Shown here: piece after piece, positions 38,495-57,831 of the stretch
Layout of the letters: every line of letters starts with the position of its first letter
Numbering within the stretch: the first letter of the stretch is position 1
Assembly: GCA_022842185.1 (NCBI GenBank)
Contig: JALHQB010000013.1
Coordinates: 1-64,000 of the forward strand
Direction of reading: 5' to 3'
Length of the DNA stretch: 64,000 nt
From: Acetobacteraceae bacterium
Lineage (GTDB): Bacteria; Pseudomonadota; Alphaproteobacteria; Acetobacterales; Acetobacteraceae
Position numbers and translations under genes: made by a program
The notes under the pieces: model-generated
Database searches by the model: none
Told to the model about the DNA's origin: nothing
The model's input: the letters and a program-made list of their open reading frames with translations, nothing else

Positions 38495-38585
38495 CGGGCG
38501 CCGCACATCCGTGCGGCTTGCCTTCGCGCCCGGCACGCGAGCGCGGAGCATAACGGTCGGTCTGGGCGCGGTCGCGTTTTGCGCC
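38495..38585 (+). repeat. Family-2 intergenic hairpin element, copy 1
   Basis: GCCGCAC-ATCC-GTGCGGC (38500-38517), then TTGCCTTCGCGCC and, 64 bases after the stem start, GGGCGCGGTCGCG. It aligns without gaps over 91 bases to 57741-57831 (66 identities by hand). Stem bases differ between copies but remain paired. It lies between two plus-strand genes. Confidence 0.65.
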
Positions 38586-38658
38586 AACGACGGCCGCCTC
38601 CGCCTCTTTCCCTCCCGACTTGCCGGTGCGACCTTCGCCCCCGGCAAGGAGACACCAG

Positions 38659-39837
38659 ATGAGCACGGAAGCGCAGATCACCGCCTGGCTGGCATCGCAG
38701 AAGGACGCGATGCTGGCCGAACTCGCCGAGATGGTGAACACCGATGGCGGGTCCTACGACAAGGTGGGCGTCGATCGCACCGGGGACCAGGTGAAGCGGT
38801 TCCTGCTCTCGCATGGCATCGCCGCCGAAGTCCTGCCGCAGCGCATGCATGGCGATTGCATCCGCGGCATCGTCGAGGGCGGGCACGCGCTCGGCACCGG
38901 CAACCAGCGGTCCAACATCGTGCTGATGGGCCATCGCGACACCGTTTTCCCGAAGGGCGAGCCCGAACGCCGGCCTTTCACGATCAAGGATGGCCGCGCC
39001 TATGGCCCGGGCGTCGCGGACATGAAGGCAGGCATCGTGATGAACATGTTCGTCCTCGCGGCCTATGCGAAGTTCGGCGGCGCACCAGGACCGCTGGTCG
39101 GGCTGTTCACCGGTGACGAGGAGATCGGCAGCCCCGAGGGCCGGCCCGTCATCGAGGCCGAGGCCAAGAACGCGCGCGTGGTGTTCAACAGCGAACCCGG
39201 CCGCGCTTCGGGCAATGTGGTGAAGGCGCGCAAGGGCGGCGTTTTCTCGGTTGTCGAGATCGAGGGCAAGGCGGCGCATTCGGGCGGCAATTTCGAAGCC
39301 GGCATCTCCGCCATCGGGGAAGCGGCGAACAAGATCGTCGCGATCCATGCGCTGACGGACCTCAAGCGCGGCATCACGCTGAATGTCGGCTTGATCCAGG
39401 GCGGGCAGAGCGTGAACACCACCGCGCCGCACTGCCAGTTCCAGATCGATCTGCGCTATGTCGAACCGGCCGACCGGGACGAGATCATGGGCAAGATCCA
39501 CGACATCATCGGTCGCGCTTATGTGCCGGGCACGAAATCCGCATTGACCATCAAGGGTGAATTCCTGCCGCTGAACCCGACCGCCGCCTCGGACCGCGTC
39601 TTTGCTGTGTATCAGGCAGCGGCGGCGGAAAGCGGGCTGAAGGTCGAAGGCGAATTCACCGGCGGCTGCGCCGATTCCGGCTTCACCGCGGCGATGGGCG
39701 CACCGACGCTGTGCGCGGTCGGCCCCGTGGGTGGCCTGGCGCACAGCCCGGAAGAATACCTCGAGGTGGAAAGCCTGGTGCCGCGCGCGCAGGCGATGGC
39801 GCGGGCGATCGCCCGGCTGGAGCAGGCCGGACTGTAG
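38659..39837 (+). CDS. M20-family metallopeptidase (carboxypeptidase G2-like)
   Basis: 392 residues with the di-zinc M20 layout: VLMGHRDTVFPKG (metal His), AYGPGVADMKAGIVMN (bridging Asp), LFTGDEEIGSPEGRPV (general base and metal Glu), SEPGRASG, the dimerisation lid with IEGKAAHSGGNFEAG, and GLAHSPEEYLEV with the last metal His. Similar to glutamate carboxypeptidase (CPG2) and other amino-acyl hydrolases; cytosolic here, no signal peptide. ATG at 38659 has AAGGAG 8 bases upstream. The TAG stop is the first triplet of a family-1 palindrome. Confidence 0.88.
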   Translation: MSTEAQITAWLASQKDAMLAELAEMVNTDGGSYDKVGVDRTGDQVKRFLLSHGIAAEVLPQRMHGDCIRGIVEGGHALGTGNQRSNIVLMGHRDTVFPKGEPERRPFTIKDGRAYGPGVADMKAGIVMNMFVLAAYAKFGGAPGPLVGLFTGDEEIGSPEGRPVIEAEAKNARVVFNSEPGRASGNVVKARKGGVFSVVEIEGKAAHSGGNFEAGISAIGEAANKIVAIHALTDLKRGITLNVGLIQGGQSVNTTAPHCQFQIDLRYVEPADRDEIMGKIHDIIGRAYVPGTKSALTIKGEFLPLNPTAASDRVFAVYQAAAAESGLKVEGEFTGGCADSGFTAAMGAPTLCAVGPVGGLAHSPEEYLEVESLVPRAQAMARAIARLEQAGL

Positions 39838-39910
39838 GGCAGGAAGCGCCTGACCGGACTCGGTCAGGCGCGGGACGATGCTCGATCGAAGCCGCCGAGC
39901 GTTGTGCGTC
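39835..39910 (+). repeat. Family-1 intergenic palindrome, copy D
   Basis: TAGGGCAGGAA starts on the M20 peptidase stop codon; the perfect stem GCGCCTGACCG (39846-39856) / CGGTCAGGCGC (39861-39871) has a GACT loop, then GGGACGATGCTCGATC. It lies between convergent genes. Confidence 0.75.
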
Positions 39911-39921
39911 AGCTGCGCCGG

Positions 39922-40890
39922 TCAGCCCCGCCAGGGCCGCACCTGCCACAGCCGCTTCAGATTGTCGTCGACGTCTTGTGCGAGGGCCTTGTACTCCGCG
40001 CCGACCAGTGGCCGCAGCGGCATGGATTGCCGCGCGGCTTCCCGCCGGAAGCCTTCGTCGTTCAGCGCATTGCGGAAGGCCGCTTCCAGTCGGGCCACGA
40101 CGGCCGGCGGCATGCCCGGCGGGCCGACGATGCCGCGCGACGCGCTGCCCACCACGTCGAAGCCTGCCTCGCGGAAGGTCGGAATCTGGGCGGCTTCGGG
40201 CTGCCGCTGCGCGGCGCCCTGCGCCAGCATCCGCAGCTTTCCCTCGCGCACCAATTGCAGCGCGTCGTTCACATTCATCACCGCCAGGTCCATGTTGCCG
40301 CCGAGCAGTTGCGGGATGAGCGGCGCCGCGCCGGCGAAGGGCACCTGCACCATGGGTGGGACATTGGCCGCCGATTCGAAGGCCAGCATGAACAGATGGT
40401 CGTCGCTGCCGATGCCCGTGGTGCCGTAGGTGACGTGGTTCGGCCGCGCTCGAGCCGCGGCGACCACATCCGCCACGCTGCGGAACGGGCTTTCGGCGCG
40501 GACGTAGAAACAGTTCGCGTCCTCGACGATGTTGCACAGGAACGTGAAGTCCATCGCGCGATACCGCACCTGACGTTCCAGCGGGATGGCGTTGTGGGCC
40601 GGGATCGTCGTCGCGCCCAGGGTGTAGCCATCGGGAGCGGCGTTGAAGGTGGCCTCCAGACCGATCTGTCCGGCCGCACCGGTGCGGTTGACGATGACCG
40701 GGCGCAGGCCCGGGATCTGCACTGCGACCAGCGGCATCACCAGCCGCGTCATCACATCGACGCCGCCGCCGGCGGGGAAGGGGACGATGACCTCGACAGG
40801 CTTGTCGCCGGGCCAGGCGGCCTGTGCGCGAAGCGTTGCGGGCATGGCGAGCAGCCCCGCCCCCGCGAGCAGGGTACGACGTTTGGTCAT
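39922..40890 (-). CDS. Bug/TctC-family solute-binding protein
   Basis: 322 residues: signal MTKRRTLLAGAGLLAMPATLRAQ, then KPVEVIVPFPAGGGVDVMTRLVMP, VIVNRTGAAGQIGLEATFNAAPDGYTLG, MVQVPFAGAAPLIPQLLGGNMDLAVMN. ATG at 40890 has the strong SD GGAGGAAGG. The usual YRG motif of the ligand loop is replaced by FAG, so the ligand may differ from the other Bug proteins here. It is transcribed alone, convergent with the M20 peptidase across a family-1 palindrome. Confidence 0.87.
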   Translation of the reverse strand: MTKRRTLLAGAGLLAMPATLRAQAAWPGDKPVEVIVPFPAGGGVDVMTRLVMPLVAVQIPGLRPVIVNRTGAAGQIGLEATFNAAPDGYTLGATTIPAHNAIPLERQVRYRAMDFTFLCNIVEDANCFYVRAESPFRSVADVVAAARARPNHVTYGTTGIGSDDHLFMLAFESAANVPPMVQVPFAGAAPLIPQLLGGNMDLAVMNVNDALQLVREGKLRMLAQGAAQRQPEAAQIPTFREAGFDVVGSASRGIVGPPGMPPAVVARLEAAFRNALNDEGFRREAARQSMPLRPLVGAEYKALAQDVDDNLKRLWQVRPWRG

Positions 40891-41103
40891 GGACCTTCCT
40901 CCCTTGGTTCTTGGCGGCAAGGCTAGGCGCCACCGTGCCGCCGCCGCAAGGAAATCAGTGCCTCGGCGACACGTCAGCAGGGGCCAGCGCGGGCGGGGCC
41001 GACCCTCACGATCCCCTTGGCTGCCCCGCGCCAGGGCGCGATGGCTTTCCCCATACGCGCCGCCGCCGCACAATCACCGGTGATACAGGACAGGACGGCG
41101 GAT

Positions 41104-41550
41104 ATGGATGCAGCGCTGCGCGACCGATATGCGGTCGAGGGGCCATGGGCGATCTGGCAGGAGCACACCATCCGCTGGGCGGAATGCGACATCTACGCCC
41201 ATGTCAATCATGCCGCCTACCTGACGCTGTTCGAGGATATGCGCATCGCGTGGTGGCTCGGCGCCGGCGGCACCTTCGCGCCTGACGCACCCGGCCCCGT
41301 GGTCGGCACGCTGGAGGTGAAATATCACCGACCGGGCCATTTCCAGGACAAGGTGTTGCTGACGGCGCGCACCGCGTCCTTCCGCCGCACGTCCTTCGTG
41401 CATCAATACGGCATGTGGCGCGACGGCTTGCTGTGTTCGGCGCGCGCGCTGTGCGTCGTGGTGGATAACGCGACGGGGAAGAAGGCCGAGATCCCCGAGG
41501 CGATGCGCCGGCTGATGGCCGAACGGGATGGTGCGGTGGCGGAGGGTTAG
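41104..41550 (+). CDS. Acyl-CoA thioesterase, hot-dog fold (4HBT/YbgC-like)
   Basis: 148 residues with the 4-hydroxybenzoyl-CoA thioesterase pattern: TIRWAECDIYAHVNHAAYLTLFEDMR contains the catalytic Asp and following His-Val-Asn, then VVGTLEVKYHRPGHFQDKVLLTART and LCSARALCVVVDNATGK. It hydrolyses acyl-CoA esters; chain preference is not visible. Start at 41104 is the last ATG before the conserved region. It is transcribed alone, convergent with the denD-like gene 54 bp away. Confidence 0.82.
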   Translation: MDAALRDRYAVEGPWAIWQEHTIRWAECDIYAHVNHAAYLTLFEDMRIAWWLGAGGTFAPDAPGPVVGTLEVKYHRPGHFQDKVLLTARTASFRRTSFVHQYGMWRDGLLCSARALCVVVDNATGKKAEIPEAMRRLMAERDGAVAEG

Positions 41551-41604
41551 GACCAGGCCACACCTGGCCGGAACGGGTCCGGTCGCGATCGATTGCGAAC
41601 GGAC

Positions 41605-42588
41605 CTAGATCCCGCGTTCCGCCTTCGTCGCCCCGAGGTCGTCCTCGATGAAGGCCTGCACGAGGTCTTCCATCGATTCCTGCTCGACGAAGCCGAACCG
41701 GCGCGCGCGCGTGGCGGCGAAGGCCGCCGGCCAGCCGACGACGATGTCGTGGACCTCCTTGTCGAAGACGAATCCCACCTTCTCCCGCGCTTCGGCACCG
41801 GCAACCGATTCGAGCGCGGTCAGCATCTTCGCCACCGTGGCGCTGCGCCCCGGCGGATTGATGCCGCGATCGGTGCCCAACGGCGCCGTGTCCATCGTCG
41901 CGGCGTGGAGGAACCATTCCATCGCGCTGCGCGGGGAACAGATCCAGACCGCGAATTCCGGCGGCACCGGGCAGTCGGTGGACAGCCCCAGCAACGGTTC
42001 GCGCACCACGGCGGACACGAAGGACGACGCCGCCTTGTTGGGCCGCCCGGGACGCACCATCACCGTGGGCAGGCGCAGGGAGACCGCATCGAGGAAGCCC
42101 TTGCGCGTCGCGTCCTGCAGCAGCAACTCGCCGATCGCCTTCTGCGCGCCATAGGAATTGGTCGGCACCTGGCGCCCGTCATCGGGCACCACCGCATCCT
42201 GCCCGCCGCCGAAGGATGCGACGGATGAGGTGAAGATCACCCGTGGCTTGGTCCCCAGCGCCCGGCAGGCACCGAGCACGGCCAGCGTGCCGTGCAGGTT
42301 CACCTTCATGCCGAGGTCGAAATCAGCCTCCGCCGCCGCGCTGACCACGGCGGCGAGGTGGAACACCACCTCGGTTCCCGCCGGAATGGCGGCGGCCACC
42401 GCGGCCGGGTCGGCGACATCCCCGCCCAGGCAGCGCAGCGGGAAGGGGGCGGCGATGGGGGCCGGGGCCGCGAGGTCGAACAAGGTCAGCCCGGTGATGG
42501 GCTTGCCGCCCAGCGTGCCGTCCTTGGCCAGTCGCGTCGCCAGCTTGCGGCCCAGGAACCCGCCGCCGCCGAGGATGGTGATCTTCAT
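41605..42588 (-). CDS. denD: NAD-dependent epimerase/dehydrogenase, D-erythronate dehydrogenase-like
   Basis: 327 residues of the extended SDR family: Rossmann motif ITILGGGGFLGRKLATRLA, FHLAAVVSAAAEADFDLGMKVNLHGTL, TSSVASFGGGQ and catalytic SYGAQK, then RLPTVMVRPGRPNKAASSFVS. The latter segments are characteristic of DenD, which oxidises D-erythronate in four-carbon acid-sugar catabolism. The partner genes (denK/otnK kinase, aldolase otnC, isomerase otnI) are not adjacent, so the call rests on sequence only. ATG at 42588 has GGAGGGA upstream. Divergent from the diaminopropionate ammonia-lyase by 64 bp. Confidence 0.78.
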   Translation of the reverse strand: MKITILGGGGFLGRKLATRLAKDGTLGGKPITGLTLFDLAAPAPIAAPFPLRCLGGDVADPAAVAAAIPAGTEVVFHLAAVVSAAAEADFDLGMKVNLHGTLAVLGACRALGTKPRVIFTSSVASFGGGQDAVVPDDGRQVPTNSYGAQKAIGELLLQDATRKGFLDAVSLRLPTVMVRPGRPNKAASSFVSAVVREPLLGLSTDCPVPPEFAVWICSPRSAMEWFLHAATMDTAPLGTDRGINPPGRSATVAKMLTALESVAGAEAREKVGFVFDKEVHDIVVGWPAAFAATRARRFGFVEQESMEDLVQAFIEDDLGATKAERGI

Positions 42589-42652
42589 GCCGTCCCTCCG
42601 ATCTCCGATCCGGTTTGGCGCGGGGCGCCAGCGGGCGCAATATCCACCCGCC

Positions 42653-43828
42653 ATGATCCCCACCTTTCCGTTCCGATTCCTGATCAATCGCCACCACGGC
42701 ACGCCGGGTGTCGTCGTGCTGCCTGACTCCGGCTTCCGACGCGCGAAGGAGGAAATCACCTCCTGGCCCGGCCATGCGGTCACGCCCCTGCTGGACCTTG
42801 CCGACGCCGCCACGGCCGCGCGGGTCGCGCGCGTCCACTACAAGGATGAGGCCGGGCGCTTCGGCTTGGGGTCCTTCAAGGCGCTGGGCGGCGCCTATGC
42901 GGTGATGCGGCTGCTGCAGGCGGAACTCGCCAAGCGCGGCGTGACCAATGCGGCGACGGCCGTGGAACTGATGGACGGCACCTTCAAGGACGCCACGAAG
43001 GCGATCACCGTCTGTTGCGCGACCGACGGCAATCACGGCCGGTCGGTCGCCTGGGGCGCGCAGCGCTTCGGCGCCACCTGCGTCATCTTCGTGCATGAAC
43101 ACGTCAGCCAGGGCCGCCGCGACGCCATTGCGCGCTACGGCGCCGAAATTCGCGTGGTGCCCGGCAATTACGACGATGCGGTGCGGCAGGCGCAGAAAGA
43201 TGCCGATGCGCGGGGCTGGTTCGTCGTCTCCGACACATCCTATCCCGGCTACACCGAGGTGCCGCGCGACGTGATGCAGGGGTATCGCGTCATGGCCGAT
43301 GAGGCGGCCGACCAGATCGGCGCCGCGCCGACGCATGCCTTCATCCAGGGTGGCGTGGGGGGCGTCGCGGCGGCGGTCGCGACGCAGATGCGCGCGCGGT
43401 TCGGGACGGGCGTGCGTGTCATCATCGCCGAGCCGGACAAGGCCGCCTGCCTGCTGGCCAGCGTCGAGGCCGGTGCGCCGACGACGATCCCCGGCGATCT
43501 CGACACGCTGATGGCGGGCCTCGCCTGCGGGGAGCCGTCGCTGCTCGCCTGGCAGGAACTGGAACGCAGCGCCTTCGCCGTCATATCCGTGCCCGATGAC
43601 AGCGCCGTGGCCTGCATGAAGGCGCTGGCGGCCCGCACGCCACGCGTCGTGGCCGGTGAAAGCGCCGTGGCGGGGCTGGCCGCACTGCTGCTTGCGGCGC
43701 GCGATCCCTTCGCGCGTGCAGCATTGGGCCTCGATGAATCGAGCCGCATCCTGCTGTTCGGCACCGAAGGCGCCACGGATCCCGAGGTCTATGCGCGGTT
43801 GGTCGGAGACGCCCCTTCATCAAAGTGA
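42653..43828 (+). CDS. Diaminopropionate ammonia-lyase-like PLP enzyme
   Basis: 391 residues of fold type II. Seen: PLP Lys in RFGLGSFKALGGAYAVMRLL near 78, CCATDGNHGRSVAWGAQRFGA near 125, SDTSYPGYTEVPRDVMQGY near 200, the PLP phosphate loop FIQGGVGGVAAAVA near 230, and LLFGTEGATDPEVYARL at the C-terminus, all as in DpaL. The reaction splits 2,3-diaminopropionate to pyruvate and two ammonia. The insert AVELMDGTFKDATKAIT is typical of the family. Start at 42653 has no strong SD. Divergent from denD; a small hairpin follows. Confidence 0.86.
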   Translation: MIPTFPFRFLINRHHGTPGVVVLPDSGFRRAKEEITSWPGHAVTPLLDLADAATAARVARVHYKDEAGRFGLGSFKALGGAYAVMRLLQAELAKRGVTNAATAVELMDGTFKDATKAITVCCATDGNHGRSVAWGAQRFGATCVIFVHEHVSQGRRDAIARYGAEIRVVPGNYDDAVRQAQKDADARGWFVVSDTSYPGYTEVPRDVMQGYRVMADEAADQIGAAPTHAFIQGGVGGVAAAVATQMRARFGTGVRVIIAEPDKAACLLASVEAGAPTTIPGDLDTLMAGLACGEPSLLAWQELERSAFAVISVPDDSAVACMKALAARTPRVVAGESAVAGLAALLLAARDPFARAALGLDESSRILLFGTEGATDPEVYARLVGDAPSSK

Positions 43829-43853
43829 CACGGAACTGTAGTGTTCCCGTAAA

Positions 43854-43871
43854 GCGGCACGGTTAAGCCGC
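43854..43871 (+). terminator. Small hairpin before the ugp operon
   Basis: GCGGC (43854-43858) pairs with GCCGC (43867-43871). The neighbouring dyad GGAAC (43832-43836) / GTTCC (43843-43847) is a possible operator for ugpB. Both lie in the 73-bp gap after the ammonia-lyase gene. Confidence 0.3.
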
Positions 43872-43901
43872 CGCGACGCCACAACGGGAGAGGATGAGCC
43901 G

Positions 43902-45251
43902 ATGCAACGCCGTACATTGCTGACCGGGGCGATGAGCCTGGGTGTCGCCGCGCCTGCCCTCGCGCAGTCCGCGCCCATCGAGATCCAATTCTGGCACGGC
44001 TTGGCCAATCCGCTGGGCGGGTTGCTGGAAAAGCGCGCCACCGACTTCAATGCGACGCAGACGAAATACAAGATCGTGCCGACCTTCCGCGGGTCCTATC
44101 CGGAGACGATGGTCGCCGCGATCGCCGCCTTCCGCGCCAACAACGCCCCGCACATCGTCCAGATGTTCGAAGTCGGCACCGGCACGATGATGAATGCCGG
44201 CCGCGCGGTGAAACCGGTGCATGAATTGCTCGCCGAAACCGGCGTGAGCATCGATTTCGACGATTATCTCCCTGGCGTGCGCGGCTATTACAGCCTGGCG
44301 GATGGGCGGATGATGTCGATGCCGTTCAATTCGTCCACCACCGTCGTGTGGTACAACAAGGACGCCTTCAGCCGCGCCGGCGTCGATCCGAACAAATTCC
44401 CCGAGACCTGGGAAGGCGTGGCTGAGATCCTGCCCAAGCTGAAGGCCGGCGGCGGCACGCAGGTGCCGATGTCCACCGCCTGGCTGACCTGGGCGCAGAT
44501 CGAGAATTTCTCCGCCATCCACGACATTCCGCTCGCCACCCTGGCGAATGGTTTCGGCGGGCTGGGGACCGAACTGCGCATCAACAACCCGCTGGTGCAG
44601 CGCCACATGGCGGCGCTGGTGCAGTGGCAGAAGGATGGGCTGTTCCGCTACGGCGGACGCAACAATGCCGGCGAGCCCGCTTTCCCGAATGGCGAAGCGG
44701 CGATCATGTTCACCTCCTCCGGCTTCCGCGCCCGCGTGCAGCGGGAAGCGCGCTTCGGTTGGGGCGTGGCGATGCTGCCGTACTATCAGGGCACGCCGCG
44801 CGCGCCGATCAATTCGATCATCGGCGGCGCCAGCCTGTGGGTGATGAACAAGGGTCCGGCCGCCGGCGGCGGGCGTTCGCGCGACGAATTCGTCGGCGTG
44901 GCCGAGTTCTTCAAGTATCTGTCGAACCCGGAAGTCGATGCCCAGTGGCATATGGACACCGGCTATGTCCCGGTGCGCCGTGCGTCCTATGCCATCGCGA
45001 AGGATAAGGGCTTCTATCGCGAGAACCCCGGCGCCGATGTGCCGATCGAACAGCTGCTGCGCGGTGGCGGCACGCTGACCGACAACAGCCGGGGCATCCG
45101 CCTGGGCGGCTTCGTCGAAATCCGCACCATCATGGAAGAAGAGATGGAGCGCGCTTTCCAGGGCCAGCAGACCGCCGAACAGGCTCTGACGGCCGCGACC
45201 ACCCGCGGCAACGTGGTGCTGCGGAACTTCGAACGCGCGAATCGCGGCTGA
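43902..45251 (+). CDS. ugpB: sn-Glycerol-3-phosphate ABC transporter, periplasmic binding protein
   Basis: 449 residues: signal [21 protein letters not shown], then [103 protein letters not shown] and [17 protein letters not shown], collinear with E. coli UgpB. It captures glycerol-3-phosphate or glycerophosphodiesters. The complete order ugpB-A-E-C follows. A Pho-type regulatory box could not be identified. Confidence 0.93.
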
Positions 45252-45268
45252 TCGAAAGGGCCGGCGCC

Positions 45269-46150
45269 GTGCGCAAGAAAGTCATCTTCCGCGGCGTCGC
45301 CCTGCCGTATCTGCTGCTGTTGCCGCAGATGATCATCACGCTGGTGTTCTTCTTCTGGCCCGCCGGCATGGCGGTCTGGCAGTCCGCCCAGCGGGAGGAC
45401 GCCTTCGGCCTGTCCACGCAATTCGTGGCCTTCGAGAACTTCACCGACCTGTTCCACGACGCGATCTATCTGAACGCGGCGTGGAACACCGTTATCTTCT
45501 CGACCGCGGTCGCCGCCTTGGCGCTGGGGTCGGCGCTGTTCCTCGCGGTGCAGGCGGACAAGCACATCCGCGGCGCGGGGGTGTATAAAACCCTGCTGAT
45601 CTGGCCCTACGCCGTGGCGCCCGCGCTGGCGGCAGTGCTGTGGCTGTTCATCTTCCATCCTTCCATCGGGCTGGTCGGGAAGGCCCTCGCCTCGCTCGGC
45701 GTCAACTGGGATTACCGGGTGAATGGCGGGCAGGCGATGACCATGGTCATCATCGCATCCGCCTGGAAGCAGGTGTCCTACAACTTCATCTTCTTCCTGG
45801 CGGGGCTGCAATCCATCCCGAACTCGGTGCTGGAGGCAGCGGCCATCGACGGCGCGCGGCCGATGCGCCGCTTCTGGGGCGTGATCTTCCCGCTGCTGTC
45901 GCCCACCACCTTCTTCCTGCTGGTGGTGAACCTGGTCTATGCCTTCTTCGATACCTTCGGCGTCATCCACGCGCTGACGCGCGGCGGGCCGGGCAATGCG
46001 ACCGAGACACTGATCTACAAGGTCTATGTCGATGGCGTGCAGAACCTCAATTTCGGGTCGTCCGCCGCGCAATCGGTGATCCTGATGCTGATCGTGATCA
46101 GCCTGACCGCCATTCAGTTCCGCTTCATCGAACGCCGGGTGCATTACTGA
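45269..46150 (+). CDS. ugpA: sn-Glycerol-3-phosphate ABC transporter, permease
   Basis: 293 residues with six predicted membrane helices and the EAA loop ([35 protein letters not shown]) that contacts the ATPase. Sequence features such as [26 protein letters not shown] and [22 protein letters not shown]-like segments are those of UgpA. GTG start at 45269, with AAAGGG upstream, is 17 bp after ugpB; the stop shares a base with the ugpE start (TGATG), so the genes are coupled. Confidence 0.93.
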
Positions 46151-47049: not shown

Positions 47050-47053
47050 GCGC

Positions 47054-50274: not shown

Positions 50275-50298
50275 TTGCGCCAGCCGGTGCTGGCGCAA
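50275..50298 (+). terminator. Hairpin after the tandem Bug genes
   Basis: TTGCGCCAGC (50275-50284) pairs perfectly with GCTGGCGCAA (50289-50298) around CGGT, followed by TTACAC. It sits 57 bases past the stop. Confidence 0.6.
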
Positions 50299-50317
50299 TT
50301 ACACTACGCTTCTGTTG

Positions 50318-50372
50318 TGATCGCGCATCTTCACGCAGCTGACTGGTCCCAGTCAGCTGCGACCTGCTCTGG
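50318..50372 (-). repeat. Family-1 intergenic palindrome, copy E
   Basis: Minus-strand reading: CCAGAGCAGGTCGCAGCTGACTGG-GA-CCAGTCAGCTGCGTGAAGATGCGCGATCAC. The arms 50335-50346 and 50349-50360 pair perfectly over 12 bases; their sequence (GCAGCTGACTGG) differs from other copies while the flank is conserved. It lies between convergent genes. Confidence 0.72.
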
Positions 50373-50387
50373 TCGCGTCGTGACGAA

Positions 50388-51608
50388 TTACCCGCCCATC
50401 CGCCCGCGCAACGGCGCCACCGCCGCATCCTGCGGCAAGACCGTCACCAGCGTGCCATCCTGCCATTGCAGCAGGAACGGCTTGGCACGCGTGTTCTGCC
50501 CACGCTCGTCGAAGCGCGCGCCCCAGCCGGTCGCCGTCGTCCCTTCCGCGATGTCGCTCGCCAGCACGGCCGTGCGGATCCGATCCTTGTCCGTCCCGCC
50601 TGCGCGCTGCACGGCATCGAGGAAGACCCGCGTGCCGAAATAATTCGCCAGCGAATGCCCCGACCGCGGGTCCGACCCATAATGACGCTTGTACAGATCG
50701 ACGAAGGTCGAGACGCCCGGGGCGAAGCGTTCATTCACGGCGAATTGGGTGAAATCGACATTCAGCACGCCGTTGAAGGCCGGCCCCACGGACCGCGCCG
50801 TCTCGGTCAGCGAATATCCGGCACCCGAACCGATCAGCATGCGCGGCTGCCAACTGGCTTCCTGCATGCCGCGAAACAGCAGCAGGATGTCGTTCTGATA
50901 CCCGGTGTGCAGCACGATGTCGGCATTGGCACCACGCAGCCGCTGGATCGCCGAGCTGAGTTCGGCCGACCGCGCCGAATACCCCAGCTTCTCGACCAAG
51001 TTCAGCCCGCGCGCGCGAAGCTGCTGTTCCTGGAAGGTGGAGACGGTCTGGCCATACAACGCGTCCTCGAACAGCACGGCGATGCGCAGCGTCGTCGGAT
51101 CGACGCCCCATAACGGCGCCAGCGCATCGGGAATCGCCGCGACCGAAACAGCGGCGAAATCCGACGATCGGGGACAACTGCGGAAGACGTAGCGGAAGCC
51201 GCGATCGGTGATGGGGTCGGCGACCGCACCCATTTCGAAATACGGCACACCCTGCAATTCGCTGACCTGCGTCGCGGCAAAGGACAGTGGCGAGGCATAG
51301 GTCCCGAACACGGCCGAGACGCGCTCGGCGGTCATCAGGCGCCGCACCTCGGCGATCGCCTGCGCCTGGTCCACGGCATCGCCCTTGACCAGGCGCACCT
51401 GGCGCCCCAGCACGCCGCCGGCCGCGTTGCGTTCCTCGACCGCGACCTCCAGACCGCGGAAGCTTTCATCGCCCAGCAGGGCCAGGGCGCCGGAGAAGGG
51501 GAACAGCGCGCCGAACCGCAATTCCGCCGCCTGGGCCAAGCCGATCCGCGGTGCCGCGGCCATGGCGGCAAGGCCCGCCAGCAGCGGACGACGACGGATC
51601 TGCTGCAC
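50388..51608 (-). CDS. Branched-chain amino acid/amide-type ABC binding protein (LivJ-like)
   Basis: 406 residues of the periplasmic-binding type I fold: a short signal after the start (VQQIRRRPLLAGLAAMAAAPRIGLAQA), then LRFGALFPFSGALALLGDESFRGLEVAVEERNAAGGVLGRQV and VFGTYASPLSFAATQVSELQGVPYFEMGAVAD, later NADIVLHTGYQNDILLLFRGMQEA. Members bind branched amino acids, amides or urea; no liv permease genes are adjacent. There is no suitable ATG; the GTG at 51608 is chosen for its SD (GGAGGAACCC). Divergent from the quinone reductase by 131 bp. Confidence 0.85.
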   Translation of the reverse strand: MQQIRRRPLLAGLAAMAAAPRIGLAQAAELRFGALFPFSGALALLGDESFRGLEVAVEERNAAGGVLGRQVRLVKGDAVDQAQAIAEVRRLMTAERVSAVFGTYASPLSFAATQVSELQGVPYFEMGAVADPITDRGFRYVFRSCPRSSDFAAVSVAAIPDALAPLWGVDPTTLRIAVLFEDALYGQTVSTFQEQQLRARGLNLVEKLGYSARSAELSSAIQRLRGANADIVLHTGYQNDILLLFRGMQEASWQPRMLIGSGAGYSLTETARSVGPAFNGVLNVDFTQFAVNERFAPGVSTFVDLYKRHYGSDPRSGHSLANYFGTRVFLDAVQRAGGTDKDRIRTAVLASDIAEGTTATGWGARFDERGQNTRAKPFLLQWQDGTLVTVLPQDAAVAPLRGRMGG

Positions 51609-51739
51609 GGGTTCCTCCACAGGCGCGGCCTGTGGGCGATTCTCCCCGCCCGGCCGGCCGCTGGCAAGCCCGCGGCCGCCTTGACGTGCGCCTTGGGCGG
51701 AGAGAATGGTCGCGCGACACGCCAATGGAGAACACGCGC

Positions 51740-52747
51740 ATGGCCAGCCTGCCGCAGGAGATGACGATCATCGACCATGGCGCCGGTGGCGGGCCGGAGG
51801 TGCTGGTGCCTGCGCGCGCACCCTTGCCCGTGCCGAAATCCGATGAGGTGCTGATCCGCGTCATGGCGACCGGGGTGAACCGCCCCGATGTGCAGCAGCG
51901 CAGCGGCAAGTATCCGCCGCCGGCCGGCGCCAGCCCGATCATGGGGCTGGAATGCGCGGGGGAGGTCGTCGCCACCGGCGCGAAGGTTACCCGCTACAAG
52001 GCCGGCGACCGGGTCTGCGCGCTGACCAATGGCGGGGCCTATGCCGAATACTGCGTAGCACCCGAGGCGCAGACGCTGCCCTGGCCGGCCGGCTATGACG
52101 CGACGCGCGCCGCCGCCTTGCCCGAGACCTATTTCACGGTCTGGGCCAACATGTTCGGCCATGGCGATCTGCGGGCCGACGAGACGGTGCTGATCCATGG
52201 CGGCACCTCCGGGATCGGCGTCACCGCCATCCAACTGGCGAAGGCCTTCGGCGCGCGCGTCTTCGCCACCGCCGGCAGCGATGACAAGGTCGCGGCCTGC
52301 CTTCGTTTCGGCGCCGATGCGGCGATCAACTACCGCACGCAGGATTTCGCCGAGGAAGTCCGCCGCCTGACCGACAAGAACGGCGTGGACGTCATCCTCG
52401 ACATGGTCGGCGGCGCGTATTTCCAGCGCAACCTGCGGTCCCTGGCATGGGACGGGCGGCTGGTGCTGATCGCCTTCCTCGGCGGGTTCGAGGTCGAGAA
52501 GGCGGACCTTCGCCCGATCATGATGAAGCGCCTGACGGTGACGGGCAGCACGATGCGCCCGCGCACCACGATGCAGAAGGGCAAGCTCGCCGCGGCGCTG
52601 GAAGCCAAGGTCTGGCCGATGTTGGCCAAGGGGGCGGTCGGGCCGGAGATCTTCCGCGTCTTCCCGCTCGACCAGGCGGAAGCGGCGCATCGGCTGATGG
52701 AAAGCAGCGAGCATATCGGCAAGATCATGCTGAAGGTCGCGGACTGA
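51740..52747 (+). CDS. NAD(P)H:quinone oxidoreductase (zeta-crystallin/MDR family)
   Basis: 335 residues of zinc-free medium-chain dehydrogenase: VLIRVMATGVNRPDVQQRSGKYPPPAGASPIMGLECAG, GDRVCALTNGGAYAEYCVAP, Rossmann motif VLIHGGTSGIGVTAIQLAKAFGARVFATAGSDDK, LIAFLGGFEVEKADLRPIMMKRLTVTGSTMRPRT. It reduces quinones or enones with NADPH in the cytoplasm. ATG at 51740 has GGAG 10 bases upstream; an ATG five codons earlier lacks an SD. Confidence 0.87.
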   Translation: MASLPQEMTIIDHGAGGGPEVLVPARAPLPVPKSDEVLIRVMATGVNRPDVQQRSGKYPPPAGASPIMGLECAGEVVATGAKVTRYKAGDRVCALTNGGAYAEYCVAPEAQTLPWPAGYDATRAAALPETYFTVWANMFGHGDLRADETVLIHGGTSGIGVTAIQLAKAFGARVFATAGSDDKVAACLRFGADAAINYRTQDFAEEVRRLTDKNGVDVILDMVGGAYFQRNLRSLAWDGRLVLIAFLGGFEVEKADLRPIMMKRLTVTGSTMRPRTTMQKGKLAAALEAKVWPMLAKGAVGPEIFRVFPLDQAEAAHRLMESSEHIGKIMLKVAD

Positions 52748-52848
52748 CATGGCGCGACTGACCTGCCGGGTCGCGCTCAGGATGCCCGCGGCCCTCGCGG
52801 TGCGGGACGCGGCCAGCCTGCGGCGTGGGCCGCGGCCGGGCTGACCCG

Positions 52849-53034
52849 GTGTTCTTCACGTTGCTCGCCATCGTCGTGGTCCTGGCGCTGGGTGTGACGC
52901 GCCTGCCGCGCGGTGCGATGCGGGCGCTGTTGGCGGGCGGCGCCGTGCTGGCGTTGTTCGGCGCGGCGCTGGTCCGCTTGCGCGGTGGGCACCTGCCGGG
53001 GCATCGACCGCGCCCATGGCACTCGCCGTCCTGA
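52849..53034 (+). CDS. Possible small two-helix membrane protein
   Basis: 61 codons from a GTG: FFTLLAIVVVLALGVTRL forms one hydrophobic helix, and after RGAM a second, ALLAGGAVLALFGAALV, then a basic tail. Composition is convincing for a small membrane protein, but the start has no SD and I know no family. The remainder of the 422-bp gap 52748-53169 contains nothing else I can support. Confidence 0.35.
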   Translation: MFFTLLAIVVVLALGVTRLPRGAMRALLAGGAVLALFGAALVRLRGGHLPGHRPRPWHSPS

Positions 53035-53169
53035 GCGCTGCCGGCGCAACGCCGCGGTTGAATGTCAACGTTCTGCCGCTTTCCAAAAAGGGTCGTATGC
53101 GCTCAGATTGCGACGGGTGCCGTCGTTTCACGCGCTTCCGCCAACGGACCGGAATTGACTCCCATTCCC

Positions 53170-54027
53170 ATGCGCTCGGCCCTGCATCTCCTGATCGTCG
53201 CGATCTTCCTGTTTGGCGGGGCCTGGCCCGTGACCAAGGCGGCGTTGACCCACGCCACACCCATGTGGTTCGCGGTCGGCCGCGCGGGGCTGGCCGCGAT
53301 CGTCTCGGCCTTGCTGCTGGCGGCGCTGCGCCGGCTGCATTGGCCGCGCCGGGGCGACTGGCCCTCGGTCGCCGCGCTGGGACTGCTGCAACTGGGCGCC
53401 TTCTTCGTGCTGGCACATGCGGCGGTGGCCATGGTCCAGGCGGGGCGAACTGCCATCATCTCGGCCGTCGTGATCTATTGGCTGATACCGCTTTCGGTCT
53501 TCGTGCTGGGGGAGAAGGTGCCGGCGCATCGCTGGGCGGCGGCCGGGCTGGGCCTGGCCGGCGTCGCGGTGCTCGCCGGTCCATGGGCGGTGGATTGGGC
53601 TGATGCGGAACAACTGTTCGGCCATCTGATGCTGGTGCTGGCCGCCCTATTCTGGACGCTGGCCATCATCACCACGCGGCGCTTCCCACCGCGCAGCCCG
53701 GTCTTCGAATTGCTGCCCTGGTGCTTCGCGCTGGCGACGCTGTTCATCCTGCCCTTTGCGCTCCTGCTGGAACCCGATGGCGGGATTTACGGCCCGTCCT
53801 GGCCTTTCATGCTGTATATAGGGTTGATCGTGGCCCCCATCGGAACCTGGTGCGTCATCGAGGTCGGTCGGCGCCTGCCCGGTGCCGTCGCCTCGGTCGC
53901 CTTCCTCCTCGTCCCGGCCTTCGGCGTGCTGGTCAGCGCGCTGTGGCTGCGCGAACCGCTGGGCTGGGACATGCTGGTGGGCGGCGGGCTGATCGTCGCC
54001 TCGGTCGTGCTGGCGGCGCGCGAATGA
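53170..54027 (+). CDS. EamA-family (DMT) transporter
   Basis: 285 residues with ten hydrophobic helices in two EamA repeats: FLFGGAWPVTKAAL and FAVGRAGLAAIVSALLLAAL in the first, AALFWTLAIITTRRF and GAVASVAFLLVPAFGVLVSALWLREPLGWDMLVGGGLIVASV in the second. Exporter of amino acids or other metabolites; substrate unknown. ATG at 53170 fits the first helix. Its stop overlaps the start of the alpha/beta hydrolase (ATGA), so the two are co-translated. Confidence 0.87.
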   Translation: MRSALHLLIVAIFLFGGAWPVTKAALTHATPMWFAVGRAGLAAIVSALLLAALRRLHWPRRGDWPSVAALGLLQLGAFFVLAHAAVAMVQAGRTAIISAVVIYWLIPLSVFVLGEKVPAHRWAAAGLGLAGVAVLAGPWAVDWADAEQLFGHLMLVLAALFWTLAIITTRRFPPRSPVFELLPWCFALATLFILPFALLLEPDGGIYGPSWPFMLYIGLIVAPIGTWCVIEVGRRLPGAVASVAFLLVPAFGVLVSALWLREPLGWDMLVGGGLIVASVVLAARE

Positions 54028-54788
54028 TCCTGTCCGTCACGGAGGCGGGGGAGGGGCCCCCGCTGGTGCTCCTACACGGTCTGTTCGGCGCCGGGCAGAA
54101 CTGGGGCGGCATCCGCCGCGCGCTCGCGCCGCGATACCGAGTCCTGACGCCCGACCTTCGCAGCCATGGCGCCTCGCCCGCCGCGGCGGCGATGGATTAC
54201 GCATCCATGGCGGCCGACGTCGCCGAGACGATGGATGCCGCCGGCGTGCCGCGCGCCGCGGTGGTCGGCCATTCGATGGGCGGCAAGGTGGCGATGGCCC
54301 TGTCCCTGGCGCATCCGGGGCGCGTCGATCGGCTGGTCGTCGCCGACATTGCCCCGGTGCGCTACAAGCCGGCGCTGCGCGGCTATGTCGATGCGATGCA
54401 GGCGCTGCCGCTGACGCCGGGGCTGACACGGCGCGACGCGGATGCCCATCTCGCCGCCACCATCCCCGAAACCGGCATTCGGGCCTTCCTGTTGCAAAGC
54501 CTGCGCTTCGAGACCGATCCGCCGAGCTGGCGGCTGGGCCTGCCCGAACTTGCCGCCGCCATGCCGGTGATCGAGGATTTCGCCCCCCCTGCCGGCGCCA
54601 CCTATGACGGGCCGGTACTGGTCATGGCCGGCGAGACATCCGGCTATGTCCGGCCCGAACACCATGCCGCCTTTCGCGCGCTGTTCCCTCGCGTGGCCTT
54701 CACCACCATTCCGAAGGCCGGGCATTGGCTGCACGCGGAGAACCCGCAGGGCTTCCTCGCGGCTCTGGAGCCGTTTCTCGCCGGTTGA
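54024..54788 (+). CDS. Alpha/beta hydrolase (YbfF-like esterase)
   Basis: 254 residues: oxyanion motif LVLLHGLFGAGQNWGG, DLRSHGAS with family-typical HG, nucleophile elbow AVVGHSMGGKVAMALSLAHP (Ser near 95), and the catalytic His in KAGHWLHAENPQGFL near the end. Resembles YbfF-type esterases that act on short acyl thioesters or esters. It overlaps the EamA gene by four bases. A family-1 palindrome follows before the convergent phosphoesterase. Confidence 0.85.
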   Translation: MILSVTEAGEGPPLVLLHGLFGAGQNWGGIRRALAPRYRVLTPDLRSHGASPAAAAMDYASMAADVAETMDAAGVPRAAVVGHSMGGKVAMALSLAHPGRVDRLVVADIAPVRYKPALRGYVDAMQALPLTPGLTRRDADAHLAATIPETGIRAFLLQSLRFETDPPSWRLGLPELAAAMPVIEDFAPPAGATYDGPVLVMAGETSGYVRPEHHAAFRALFPRVAFTTIPKAGHWLHAENPQGFLAALEPFLAG

Positions 54789-54797
54789 CGCTCCATG

Positions 54798-54860
54798 CCC
54801 TTGTTTGAGCGGACATGTTCACGCGCCTGACCGAGTCCCGTCAGGCGCGGTCTGTCCTAA
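54798..54860 (-). repeat. Family-1 intergenic palindrome, copy F
   Basis: Minus-strand reading: TTAGGACAGACCGCGCCTGAC-GGGACTCG-GTCAGGCGCGTGAACATGTCCGCTCAAACAAGGG. Arms 54823-54831 and 54840-54848. The TAG at its start is the stop codon of the minus-strand phosphoesterase. It lies between convergent genes. Confidence 0.75.
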
Positions 54861-55744
54861 CCGGCGATGTCCACCACCGTGATCTCGGGCGGCACGCCAA
54901 ATCGCACCGGCAGGGTGCTGATGCCGAGCCCTCCGGACACGACCAGGTCGCGCCCATCCTCCCGTACATGCCCCCAGGCATAGCGATTGCCGTAGCGCGA
55001 GGATGTGTAGGGCGACCACCCCAGCAGCCGCACCTGTCCACCATGGGTGTGGCCGCTGAAGGTGACGGCGGCGCGGCCCGGCAGGGTGGCGAAGATGTCG
55101 GGTTCATGGGCCATGACGAGCAAGGGCGCATCGCCCGCCACCTGTTCCAGCAGCCGCGGCACATCCTCGGCGCCACGATAGGCGCCGAAGGCCCATTGGG
55201 ATTCCAGCCCGCCGACCAGCACCGGTCCGGCGCGCATCACCTGGTTTCGCAGCACCGGAATGCCCACCGCTTCAAGTGCGCGCCCCATCGTCGTCACCGC
55301 ACCGGCGCCTCGGCGCATCGCGACGGGGTCTTCCCACCAGTCATGATTGCCGTTGACCGCGAAGGTGCCGAGCGGTGCGCGCAGCCCCGCAAGGCGCCGC
55401 GCCACATCGGCATGGGGGATGACGCGGGTGACGAAGTCGCAGGACGGCCCGAAATCGCCGGTCATCAGCACCAGGTCGGGCGCCAGCGCGTTGGTTCGCG
55501 CGACGATGTGTTCGATGCGCGCCTCATCCATCAGCGGGGCGCCGGCATGCAGATCGGATAGCATTGCCACGCGCAACGACAGGCCCGCCGGCCACCCGGT
55601 CGGGCGCACCGTGTGGTGTTGGATGGTCAGCCGCAGGAACGGTTCGACACCAAAGCCATAGGCGGCAAACCCCGCGCCGGCCGCGACCAAGCCGCCCAAC
55701 CCCGCAACGATGCCGCGCCGTCCGATCATGGGGTCATATTGCAC
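54857..55744 (-). CDS. Membrane-anchored metallophosphoesterase (YkuE-like)
   Basis: 295 residues: N-terminal hydrophobic anchor with twin Arg (MIGRRGIVAGLGGLVAAGAGFAAYGFGV), then the calcineurin-fold metal motifs AMLSDLHAGAP, VLMTGDFGPS, AVNGNHDWWEDP, and FSGHTHGGQVRLLG. Similar to YkuE/UDP-2,3-diacylglucosamine-hydrolase-like phosphoesterases acting at the membrane, possibly on lipids; Tat export is plausible. The start could be the ATG at 55744 or at 55729; neither has a clear SD. TAG stop lies in a family-1 palindrome. Confidence 0.85.
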   Translation of the reverse strand: MQYDPMIGRRGIVAGLGGLVAAGAGFAAYGFGVEPFLRLTIQHHTVRPTGWPAGLSLRVAMLSDLHAGAPLMDEARIEHIVARTNALAPDLVLMTGDFGPSCDFVTRVIPHADVARRLAGLRAPLGTFAVNGNHDWWEDPVAMRRGAGAVTTMGRALEAVGIPVLRNQVMRAGPVLVGGLESQWAFGAYRGAEDVPRLLEQVAGDAPLLVMAHEPDIFATLPGRAAVTFSGHTHGGQVRLLGWSPYTSSRYGNRYAWGHVREDGRDLVVSGGLGISTLPVRFGVPPEITVVDIAG

Positions 55745-55798
55745 CCGCGAAGATGGCAGGGGCGGGGCGATGATGAGGTGCGGGCCGGCGCAGGATTC

Positions 55799-56446
55799 TC
55801 AGATCGCCGTGGGCGCCCGGAACCGACCGTCCTTGGACAGATCCGCCGCCCGCCAGAAATACCACGCCGCGGTGGTGCGGTACGGCGCCCAGGCTTCCCC
55901 GATCATCGTGAAGGCGCGTGGCTTGGGCTGTTCATCCAGCCCCGTGGCGACGCGATACCCCTCCCGCACGCCAAAATCATCGACCGGCAGGATGTCCGGC
56001 CGGCCCAGCGTGAAGATCAGCAGCATTTCGACCGTCCAGCGCCCCACGCCACGCAGCGGCACCAGGCGCTCGATCAATGCGTCATCGGTGAGCCGGCGGG
56101 CGGCGGCACGCGTCGGCACCACCCCGGCCGCAGCCTTTTCGGCGATGTCGCGGATGGCGAGCACCTTGTTGCCCGACAGCCCGCAGGCGCGCATTTGTTC
56201 AGGTGTCAGCGCCAGCACCGTCTCCGGCGCCGGGAAGCCCTCGCAGGCGCAACAGGCGATGAACCGGCCGAGGATGGCCTCCGCCGCGCGTCCATGAACC
56301 TGCTGGTGGGCAATGGCACGCACCAGCGCCTCATAGGGTTGGCGCTTCGCGACGGTCAGCGTGCAGGGGCCGACCTGGCGGATCACAGCTTTCATCATCG
56401 GATCACGCCGAAGGTGCCGAAGCGCCTCCGGCGTGCCGATGGTCAC
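55799..56446 (-). CDS. DNA-3-methyladenine glycosylase II (AlkA/MAG type)
   Basis: 215 residues of the HhH-GPD superfamily: YEALVRAIAHQQVHGRAAEAILGRF near 40, ACGLSGNKVLAIRDIAEKA near 90, and the helix-hairpin-helix plus catalytic Asp segment LRGVGRWTVEMLLIFTLGRPDILPVDDFGVR near 130-160. It excises alkylated purines in base-excision repair. GTG at 56446 overlaps the TGA of the TRAP DctM gene (GTGA), so its translation appears coupled to a transporter gene with no obvious functional link. Confidence 0.85.
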   Translation of the reverse strand: MTIGTPEALRHLRRDPMMKAVIRQVGPCTLTVAKRQPYEALVRAIAHQQVHGRAAEAILGRFIACCACEGFPAPETVLALTPEQMRACGLSGNKVLAIRDIAEKAAAGVVPTRAAARRLTDDALIERLVPLRGVGRWTVEMLLIFTLGRPDILPVDDFGVREGYRVATGLDEQPKPRAFTMIGEAWAPYRTTAAWYFWRAADLSKDGRFRAPTAI

Positions 56447-57720
56447 CGGAACACCAACTGCGGCAGGGTCAGCGTGATGGCCGGCACATAGGTGATCGCC
56501 ATGAGGCAGGCGAAGATGACGGCGATGAACACCGCGAGCGGCTTGATCATCTTGTCCACGCTGCACCCGGCCACCTGCGCCGCGGCGAACAGGTTCACGC
56601 CGAAGGGCGGCGTGATCATGCCCAAGGCCAGGTTCACAACCATGATGGTGCCGAAATGCACGCCATCGATGCCGATGCGCGTGGCGGCTTCCGACAGGAT
56701 CGGCGCCAGCACGATGATGGAGGCCGATGTCTCGACGAACATGCCGATGACGAACAGGCACAGATTCACCACCATCAGATAGGCGGCCGGGTTCTCGAAG
56801 GAGGTGGCGAGCCACGCAACCGCCGCATCGGGCACGTTCTGGCGGTTCAGCAGCCAGGAGAAGAGTGCCGCGCAGGCGATGATGAACATGATCACGCCGC
56901 TGCTGATCACCGATTTGCGGAAGATCGGGTACAGGTCGCGCAGGCCGATCTCGCGATGCAGGAACATGCCCACGATCAGCGCATAGACCACGGCGACGAC
57001 CGATGCCTCGGTCGGCGTGGTGATGCCGCCATAGATGCCGCCGAGGACCACCACCGGCATCACAAGTGCGAAGCCGGCCTGCTTCGTCGCGGTCAGGAAG
57101 GACAGGCGGCCGACGCCGTCCTCCTTGCCCCAGCCCTTGATGCGGCACCAGATCAGCACGGTGGCGATCAGTGCGCCGCCGATCAGGATGCCCGGCCCGA
57201 AGCCCGCGATGAACAATTCGGGGATCGAGGTCTGCGTCGTGACACCATACAGGATCATCGGGATCGACGGCGGGATGATGACGCCCAGTTCAGCCGCCGT
57301 CGCCTGCAGGGCGGCGGCGAAAGCGACCGGATACCCCGCGCGCACCAGCGCCGGGATCATGATGGCGCCAACGGCGAAGGTGGTCGCGACCGATGATCCG
57401 CTGATCGCGGCAAAGATCATGCAGGTGACGACACAGGTGGCGGGCAGTCCGCCCTGCACGCCGCCCACGATCGATCGCGCGAATTCCACAAGCCGGCGCG
57501 AAATGCCGCCGACATCCATCAGGTTGCCCGCAAGGATGAAGAACGGAATGGCCGCGAGCGGGAATTTGTCGAGCGCCACGAACAGCTGCTGCGCCGCGAC
57601 GATCAGCGGGAAGGACGTGAATCCCGCGATGCCGATGACGGCGGCGATGCCGATGGCCAGGGCGACCGGGACACTGATGGCGAACAGCACCAGCATCACG
57701 GTGAGCATGGAAGCGCTCAT
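56443..57720 (-). CDS. dctM: TRAP transporter large permease (DctM)
   Basis: 425 residues with about 12 membrane helices. DctM landmarks: FPLAAIPFFILAGNLMDVGGISRRLVEFA, ATCVVTCMIFAAISGSSVATTFAVGAIMIPAL, ELGVIIPPSIPMILYGVTT, and GMITPPFGVNLFAAAQVAGC. It carries out sodium-driven import with DctQ and a DctP binding protein. The preceding dctQ is separated by 157 bp that contain a family-2 hairpin element on the opposite strand. It overlaps the alkA-type gene by four bases. Confidence 0.92.
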   Translation of the reverse strand: MSASMLTVMLVLFAISVPVALAIGIAAVIGIAGFTSFPLIVAAQQLFVALDKFPLAAIPFFILAGNLMDVGGISRRLVEFARSIVGGVQGGLPATCVVTCMIFAAISGSSVATTFAVGAIMIPALVRAGYPVAFAAALQATAAELGVIIPPSIPMILYGVTTQTSIPELFIAGFGPGILIGGALIATVLIWCRIKGWGKEDGVGRLSFLTATKQAGFALVMPVVVLGGIYGGITTPTEASVVAVVYALIVGMFLHREIGLRDLYPIFRKSVISSGVIMFIIACAALFSWLLNRQNVPDAAVAWLATSFENPAAYLMVVNLCLFVIGMFVETSASIIVLAPILSEAATRIGIDGVHFGTIMVVNLALGMITPPFGVNLFAAAQVAGCSVDKMIKPLAVFIAVIFACLMAITYVPAITLTLPQLVFR

Positions 57721-57740
57721 GGTGTGATGCCCTCAGTCGG

Positions 57741-57831
57741 CGGGCGGGCCGCATCCGCGGCCCTTGCCTTCGCGCCCTGCGCTGGTGCGGGGGCGATGAC
57801 GTGCGGGATGGGCGCGGTCGCGCTGTGCGCT
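57741..57831 (+). repeat. Family-2 intergenic hairpin element, copy 2
   Basis: GGGCCGC-ATCC-GCGGCCC (57746-57763), TTGCCTTCGCGCC, and GGGCGCGGTCGCG 64 bases after the stem start, in perfect register with copy 1 at 38495. It lies between dctQ and dctM, opposite to their direction. Confidence 0.65.

What the first reader, a model, noticed from the sequence alone, without database searches (positions are those of the whole stretch)
38495..57831. Dispersed hairpin family 2 with conserved TCC loop and TTGCCTTCGCGCC tail
38495-38585 and 57741-57831 align without gaps (66 of 91 identical by hand). The stem GCCGCAC/GTGCGGC versus GGGCCGC/GCGGCCC changes in a paired way, and a distal block GGGCGCGGTCGCG is identical. 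A third, shorter copy is at 59641-59674 (minus strand), with stem GGCCCG/CGGGCC. The element could be a small structured RNA or mobile palindromic unit distinct from family 1.
Basis: seen in the sequence. Interest (0 to 1): 0.65.

Follow-up and report, generated by a model that had tools for sequence, protein, structure and literature searches.

The report
Hairpin repeat inserted at gene junctions
A bacterial genome is dotted with about a hundred copies of a small hairpin-rich DNA element that sits between genes, at some sites splitting overlapping gene pairs while bringing what looks like its own ribosome-binding sequence, and that in a related genus has the ends of a miniature jumping element.

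Summary
The two copies are full members (window 38482-38587 and 57728-57833); the 'third, shorter copy' is a full member with an insert in its first hairpin (59635-59737, minus). A covariance model finds 108 matches in the home genome. The family is abundant in many Neoroseomonas/Roseomonas genomes; diverged members occur in other Acetobacteraceae (9 of 102 sampled genera, home genus included) and on Azospirillum plasmids. Its helices show strong paired change. Copies are intergenic (130 of 131), rare between divergent genes, and cluster beside stop or start codons. At three junctions, one of them the window's DctQ-DctM pair, relatives without the element have an ATGA stop/start overlap. The element splits it and usually presents GAGGG 7-9 nt before the start. 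In another genus the core sits in 120-157 bp units with inverted ends TACCAAC/GTTGGTA and TNA flanks that match in 14 of 15 units: a MITE. Best reading: a MITE-like family tolerated inside operons because one end can serve as a ribosome-binding leader. The transposase, and the insertion chemistry in Neoroseomonas, are not shown.

The parts
38482..38587 (+). element copy 1 (core, 106 positions), 2 nt behind the stop codon of an amidase gene and 71 nt before an M20 peptidase gene, all on the + strand
   Evidence: covariance model match 104.4 bits; gene context; Pfam
38484..38489 (+). CCCTCA block of copy 1 (reverse complement TGAGGG)
   Evidence: sequence
38500..38517 (+). H1 of copy 1: GCCGCAC-ATCC-GTGCGGC
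   Evidence: sequence and paired changes
38518..38530 (+). constant block TTGCCTTCGCGCC; its CGCGCC is the 5' arm of H2
38564..38570 (+). GGGCGCG, the 3' arm of H2
57728..57833 (+). element copy 2 (core), lying between DctQ and DctM genes that run on the - strand
   Evidence: covariance model match 97.7 bits; empty and filled sites in relatives; Pfam
57730..57734 (-). GAGGG, read on the - strand: proposed Shine-Dalgarno sequence for DctM, 9 nt before its ATG at 57720-57718
   Evidence: sequence and spacing in filled alleles; function inferred
57746..57763 (+). H1 of copy 2: GGGCCGC-ATCC-GCGGCCC
57764..57776 (+). constant block TTGCCTTCGCGCC of copy 2
57834..57877 (.). stretch between core and DctQ stop codon; absent at empty sites, origin unclear, H0 position
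59635..59737 (-). element copy 3, between two DctP genes, with about 45 extra bases in the loop of H1
   Evidence: covariance model match 27.4 bits, E 0.00032; Pfam

Best explanation
This is a family of short non-autonomous mobile elements (MITE-like), built as a chain of hairpins, that spread between genes in Neoroseomonas and relatives. SHOWN: dispersed and tandem copies; paired changes in the helices; the same junctions with and without the element in congeners; in another Acetobacteraceae genus (G085; one further unit in G161) the same core inside units with inverted ends TACCAAC/GTTGGTA and TNA flanks. SHOWN: at three junctions the allele without the element is an ATGA stop/start overlap, and filled alleles keep a stop codon on one side and usually have GAGGG 7-9 nt before the start codon on the other. 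INFERRED: insertion is by a transposase supplied in trans by an insertion sequence that shares the first 36 bases. INFERRED: copies persist inside operons because the end read towards the downstream gene can serve as a Shine-Dalgarno leader, replacing coupled by independent initiation; other copies persist because they lie just behind stop codons, away from promoters.
For: 108 matches in the home genome and tandem arrays. 12 of 22 same-genus relatives have 10 or more matches. DctQ-DctM: of 30 loci 7 are filled, 20 empty, 2 carry other inserts, 1 lacks DctM; all 20 empty ones are ATGA. hslU junction: of 28 parsed loci 13 are filled and 15 are ATGA overlaps. EVE-gene junction: filled in L140 and L153, ATGA in L077. 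GAGGG 7-9 nt before the start in 7 of 7 filled DctM and 12 of 13 filled hslU alleles. Placement: 30 of 58 left ends 0-11 nt behind a stop (5.3 expected) and 7 of 22 at 6-10 nt from a leftward gene's start (0.95 expected) in the home genome; 21 of 51 and 21 of 25 in relatives (4.6 and 1.6 expected). MITE form: 14 of 15 two-ended units with identical 3-bp TNA flanks, 14 of the 15 holding the core.
Against: No duplication or inverted ends are established in Neoroseomonas. Stops beside the element there are not enriched for a TNA target (44 of 57 against 667 of 784 background, p = 0.13), while TAG is enriched (27 of 57 against 136 of 784). The next base after the start is often not A (by reading), so a TGA duplication is not visible in most filled alleles. 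No transposase was found: all 7 IS-type left ends in G085 stop at contig ends, and plasmids gave no match. Keeping of GAGGG next to starts: home genome 7 of 8 against 41 of 90 elsewhere (p = 0.03), but relatives 19 of 22 against 55 of 60, no difference. One filled EVE allele (L153) has CAGGG, not GAGGG. Site counts include shared orthologous sites. No expression data.
Confidence: 0.68

Rival explanations
1. A structured RNA family (leader regulator or sRNA) kept by selection as RNA; copy-number growth by mobility is incidental.
For: Paired changes in all modelled helices across genera (99.5% of cells paired, 12 of 23 pairs with two-sided changes, 0 of 500 shuffles) and long invariant blocks. 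At the hslU junction H1 differs between species while the flanking blocks stay nearly the same.
Against: Copies lie in both orientations to genes, including convergent gene ends (32 of 98 in the home genome), where one cis-regulatory role is unlikely. Paired change can also come from exchange between copies or template switching within hairpins. No Rfam match. No transcript data.
Confidence: 0.17
2. REP-like repeats mobilised by a RAYT (IS200/IS605-type tyrosine transposase).
For: Palindromic, intergenic, mainly between unidirectional and convergent genes, as described for REPs in PMC3733652 (abstract and passages).
Against: No Y1_Tnp match in the home genome, 95% complete; units with inverted ends and duplications in G085 do not fit this mechanism; no GTAG tag noted.
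Confidence: 0.05
3. Transcription terminators or attenuators that look alike because of shared ancestry.
For: Many copies start directly behind stop codons, and T-rich stretches precede the left end.
Against: Constant spacing of two blocks, invariant unpaired blocks, tandem arrays and empty sites are not expected of terminators; in operon junctions the element precedes start codons.
Confidence: 0.06

Closest known systems
Bacterial MITEs and small mobile sequences such as RUP, Correia/NEMIS, YPAL/RU-2 (PMC2229807, passages read)
   Same: Short, no coding capacity recognised here, inverted ends and target duplication in the G085/G161 form, intergenic, foldable
   Different: G+C-rich; core shared with Neoroseomonas copies for which no inverted ends were found; entry into ATGA overlaps with GAGGG before the start was not mentioned in the passages I read
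bcr1 repeat of Bacillus cereus (recalled; the papers seen only as a listing)
   Same: As recalled: about 155 bp, dispersed, intergenic, structured
   Different: Different phylum and sequence (not compared here)
GTAG and CGTC REPs (PMC3733652, abstract and passages read)
   Same: Palindromic, intergenic, mostly between unidirectional and convergent genes
   Different: REPs are 20-40 bp; CGTC REPs have 8-9 bp stems, 4-5 nt loops, mostly CCA tails, and are reported missing in Acetobacteraceae; here a chain of hairpins of about 106 nt or more
TAACTGA direct repeats of Beggiatoaceae (PMC4679880, passages read)
   Same: Repeats lying within a few nucleotides of start codons, proposed to act in translation
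   Different: Seven-nucleotide direct repeats, about 10% with an SD; here a structured element carrying GAGGG
Caulobacter CIR repeats (PMC2229807, passages read)
   Same: Intergenic repeats in an alphaproteobacterium, only partly MITE-like
   Different: Carry a GANTC motif; no relation tested

Membership tests
MITE (G085/G161 form) | Terminal inverted repeats | tested here: met
   TACCAAC...GTTGGTA in 15 two-ended units
MITE (G085/G161 form) | Target-site duplication | tested here: met
   identical 3-bp TNA flanks in 14 of 15 units
MITE (G085/G161 form) | Parent transposase with the same ends | tested here: inconclusive
   7 left ends share 36 bases then diverge, all cut by contig ends
MITE (Neoroseomonas copies) | Terminal inverted repeats and target-site duplication | tested here: inconclusive
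   no conserved inverted ends seen by eye; stop-codon types do not favour TNA
MITE (Neoroseomonas copies) | Occupied and empty sites in relatives | tested here: met
   DctQ-DctM, hslU and EVE junctions
RAYT-mobilised REP | RAYT (Y1_Tnp) gene in the genome | tested here: not met
   0 matches to PF01797 in the home genome; control genomes ring in 5 of 14
CGTC REP | Unpaired CGTC tag, 8-9 bp stem beginning AT, CCA tail | tested here: not met
   by comparing the consensus with the published description
Known Rfam RNA family | Match to a covariance model | tested here: not met
   0 at gathering in the window; 0 at E 0.5 in 5 loci
Structured RNA | Transcribed as a discrete RNA | not testable with these tools
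   no expression data held

The most novel reading that the evidence does not exclude
A mobile element that acts as a portable translation-initiation leader: by entering ATGA stop/start overlaps it turns translationally coupled gene pairs into independently initiated ones, and has repeatedly rewired operons of conserved genes in Acetobacteraceae.
Probability: 0.3. Interest if true: 0.8.

Novelty: new variant of a known kind. Interest (0 to 1): 0.55.

Why it matters
If the leader role is right, the family offers natural before/after pairs for asking what happens to protein ratios when translational coupling is broken: the same junctions exist coupled and uncoupled in congeners (DctQ-DctM, hslU). 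It would also show how a repeat can colonise the tight spaces inside operons without silencing the downstream gene. Independently of that, it is a structured repeat family seen in Acetobacteraceae and Azospirillum for which no Rfam match was found in the stretches searched.

Tried and rejected
Coding origin: rejected, 130 of 131 copies are intergenic by the improved gene caller. A first caller trained on antisense ORFs; its contexts were discarded.

RAYT/REP: no Y1 transposase in the home genome. Known Rfam family: no match.

TNA target in Neoroseomonas from stop-codon type: tested, not supported. Selective keeping of GAGGG next to starts: p = 0.03 in the home genome, no difference in the relatives set.

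H0: a perfect stem of 7 bp or more in the 34 nt right of the core in 41 of 96 own copies, shuffled fraction 13%. Some of these stems are not H0, and 55 copies lack such a stem, so H0 is a frequent but not universal part.

Autonomous IS: not found. The unmasked all-against-all flank comparison was swamped by the repeats and replaced by a masked one.

HemJ-like site (Pfam UPF0093): my pattern read the gene end in only 5 of 30 loci: filled in the home genome, empty in 4. Not used as a main argument.

Dropped rows: 6 of 40 sequences before the model (3 chance, 1 half copy, 1 truncated tandem copy, and the window's copy 3). 10 of 108 home matches could not be placed because their DNA was not fetched or not mapped. 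L325 and L331 were misparsed at hslU. L233 lacks DctM, and L215 was missed by my expression and counted as filled by eye. L385, L394 and L399 were left out of alignment A3 as near-duplicates.

Filled state at DctQ-DctM is not monophyletic on a three-gene tree with some weak nodes. Repeated insertion, loss and exchange between species cannot be separated.

Literature: searches listed no paper that I recognised as reporting this element. Only open-licence papers are held, and most listed papers were not opened.
Full report
WHAT IS THERE. The two intervals match at 66 of 91 positions, against 45-49 for the next best places in the window. A covariance model was built from 34 home-genome copies (alignment, model). 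It finds three members in the window: 38482-38587 (+), 57728-57833 (+) and 59635-59737 (-), the last with an insert in the first hairpin. The next matches in the window have E of 0.15 or more.

EXTENT. The home genome has 108 matches at E 0.01 or better among the 150 first-look candidates that were scored, so the number is a floor. Of 39 genomes in the relatives search (own genome included in the table), 22 are tallied with a match at E 0.001 or better, at most 101 candidates scored per genome; 12 of the 22 same-genus relatives have 10 or more. The 80 listed come from Roseomonas, Neoroseomonas and one Rhodospirillales MAG, and the two blocks span 60-62 bases although the pattern allowed 52-72. 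Of 299 genomes of the family, 25 have matches at E 1e-6 or better, in 9 of 102 genera, with only 13 candidates scored per genome. Azospirillum plasmids carry the same start, H1 and following block with further hairpins behind.

ANATOMY. Forward strand as in window copies 1 and 2: CCCTCA; an outer stem (GGC/GCC) around H1 with loop ATCC; TTGCCTTCGCGCC; a linker of about 33 nt; GGGCGCG, which can pair with CGCGCC (H2); a short hairpin (H3); then often a terminal hairpin of the type CGGATCGCGG...CCGCGATCCG (H0). In 131 matches outside the home genome 97.7% of cells are paired (shuffles 87.4%), 256 cells show changes on both sides (shuffles 100.6), and slid versions fall to 37-59%. That alignment was fitted to the model, which leans towards it, and most of this signal is in H1. 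In 17 matches from other genera the outer stem is mostly GCC/GGC, the linker may be nearly absent, and H1, H2 and H3 change in a paired way: 99.5% of cells paired, 12 of 23 pairs with two-sided changes (also fitted to the model). Single-sequence folds differ between copies; L393 and L401, two short forms, fold as separate successive hairpins in whole or part. Paired change can arise by selection on RNA or DNA hairpins, by exchange between copies, or by template switching within a hairpin. These data do not separate them.

WHERE IT SITS. With a codon-usage gene caller seeded from window genes, five of six with Pfam support when seeded and the sixth later, 130 of 131 copies in 80 loci are intergenic and 1 lies between divergent genes. 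In the home genome 98 of 108 copies could be placed: 37 +|+, 32 +|-, 21 -|- and 8 -|+ in element orientation. Left ends cluster 0-11 nt behind stop codons (30 of 58, 5.3 expected under uniform placement) or 6-10 nt from the start codon of a leftward gene (7 of 22, 0.95 expected). In relatives the counts are 21 of 51 (4.6 expected) and 21 of 25 (1.6 expected); orthologous sites recur there and the loci were chosen by exact pattern. Read towards the leftward gene, the left end is typically CTGAGGG, a short, often A-rich spacer, then the start codon: a plausible Shine-Dalgarno leader.

EMPTY SITES. At DctQ-DctM, the site of window copy 2, 30 loci were read: 7 filled, 20 empty, 2 with other inserts (intergenic 52 and 67 nt), 1 without DctM. 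All 20 empty junctions are ATGA overlaps; 13 of them are from the more distant congeners (DctQ identity 71-74%), none of which is filled. All 7 filled alleles have GAGGG 7-9 nt before the ATG. Filled species are not one clade. In one clade of four with full support, two carry the GGC and two the GCC form of the outer stem at this same junction. DctQ-DctM-like junctions with the element are also visible in two genomes of another genus (L392, L397, from the start of DctM by eye). At the start of hslU (named from its N-terminus, recalled; Pfam shows AAA), 13 of 28 parsed loci are filled and 15 have an ATGA overlap; 12 of the 13 have GAGGG 8-9 nt before the start, one (L326) does not. A third junction, upstream of an EVE-domain gene, is filled in L140 and L153, has a probably degenerate copy in L175, and is an ATGA overlap in L077; L153 has CAGGG. 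Since the distant congeners have the overlap at the first two junctions, insertion is the simpler direction.

A MITE FORM. In G085, and one unit in G161, the same core lies in units beginning TACCAAC and ending GTTGGTA. Fifteen units with both ends were readable, 120-157 bp long; 14 hold the core; the flanking 3 bp are identical in 14 of 15, and all fit TNA. G085 has 40 such left ends. Seven further-typed left ends share the first 36 bases, run into different sequence, and stop 10-16 nt later at the end of the held sequence, as expected of an unassembled multi-copy IS. TNA includes TGA, so an insertion into the TGA of ATGA with duplication would leave a stop on one side and, with an A from the element, a start on the other. 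That is attractive but not shown in Neoroseomonas: stops beside the element are not enriched for the TNA type (44 of 57 against 667 of 784), TAG is enriched (27 of 57 against 136 of 784), and only some filled starts keep NTGA.

KNOWN KINDS. It works like a MITE; the G085/G161 form meets two defining features, and the parent transposase is unseen. For Neoroseomonas inverted ends and duplications are inconclusive, so there I call it MITE-like. It does not meet the tested feature of RAYT-mobilised REPs nor the description of CGTC REPs in PMC3733652. No Rfam match was found. Placement just before start codons resembles the TAACTGA repeats of Beggiatoaceae (PMC4679880, passages). That ATGA pairs can be coupled by termination-reinitiation is taken from the listing of PMC6728339, which I did not open.

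VERDICT. A real, large, structured repeat family with good evidence of mobility: a new variant of small bacterial mobile palindromic elements. The leader function is the most interesting part and remains an inference.

Noticed in passing
window 59635-59737 (-); L153 1133-1280; L162, L183, L225: Some copies hold about 45 extra bases in the loop of H1. In the window copy and L153 this is itself a hairpin of the type CCCATGC..GTTGC...GCAACG..GCATGGG, perhaps a nested element.
   Followed up: partly
L459-L461 (Azospirillum plasmids): The core is preceded by a long hairpin (GAGCGTAAAGTCTGA and its complement, or close variants) and followed by a related inverted sequence, suggesting another set of mobile ends around the same core.
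   Followed up: no
L206-L209 (IMG/VR contigs): Four contigs classed as viral carry the element; three are nearly the same at the copy. They may be bacterial or prophage DNA.
   Followed up: no
home genome, left ends of elements: TAG stops are over-represented beside the element (27 of 57 against 136 of 784), half of them as TTAG (14 of 27 against 19 of 136); the cause is unknown.
   Followed up: partly
window 58527-59498 and 59754-60725 (-): Two adjacent DctP genes flank copy 3 in the TRAP transporter cluster.
   Followed up: no
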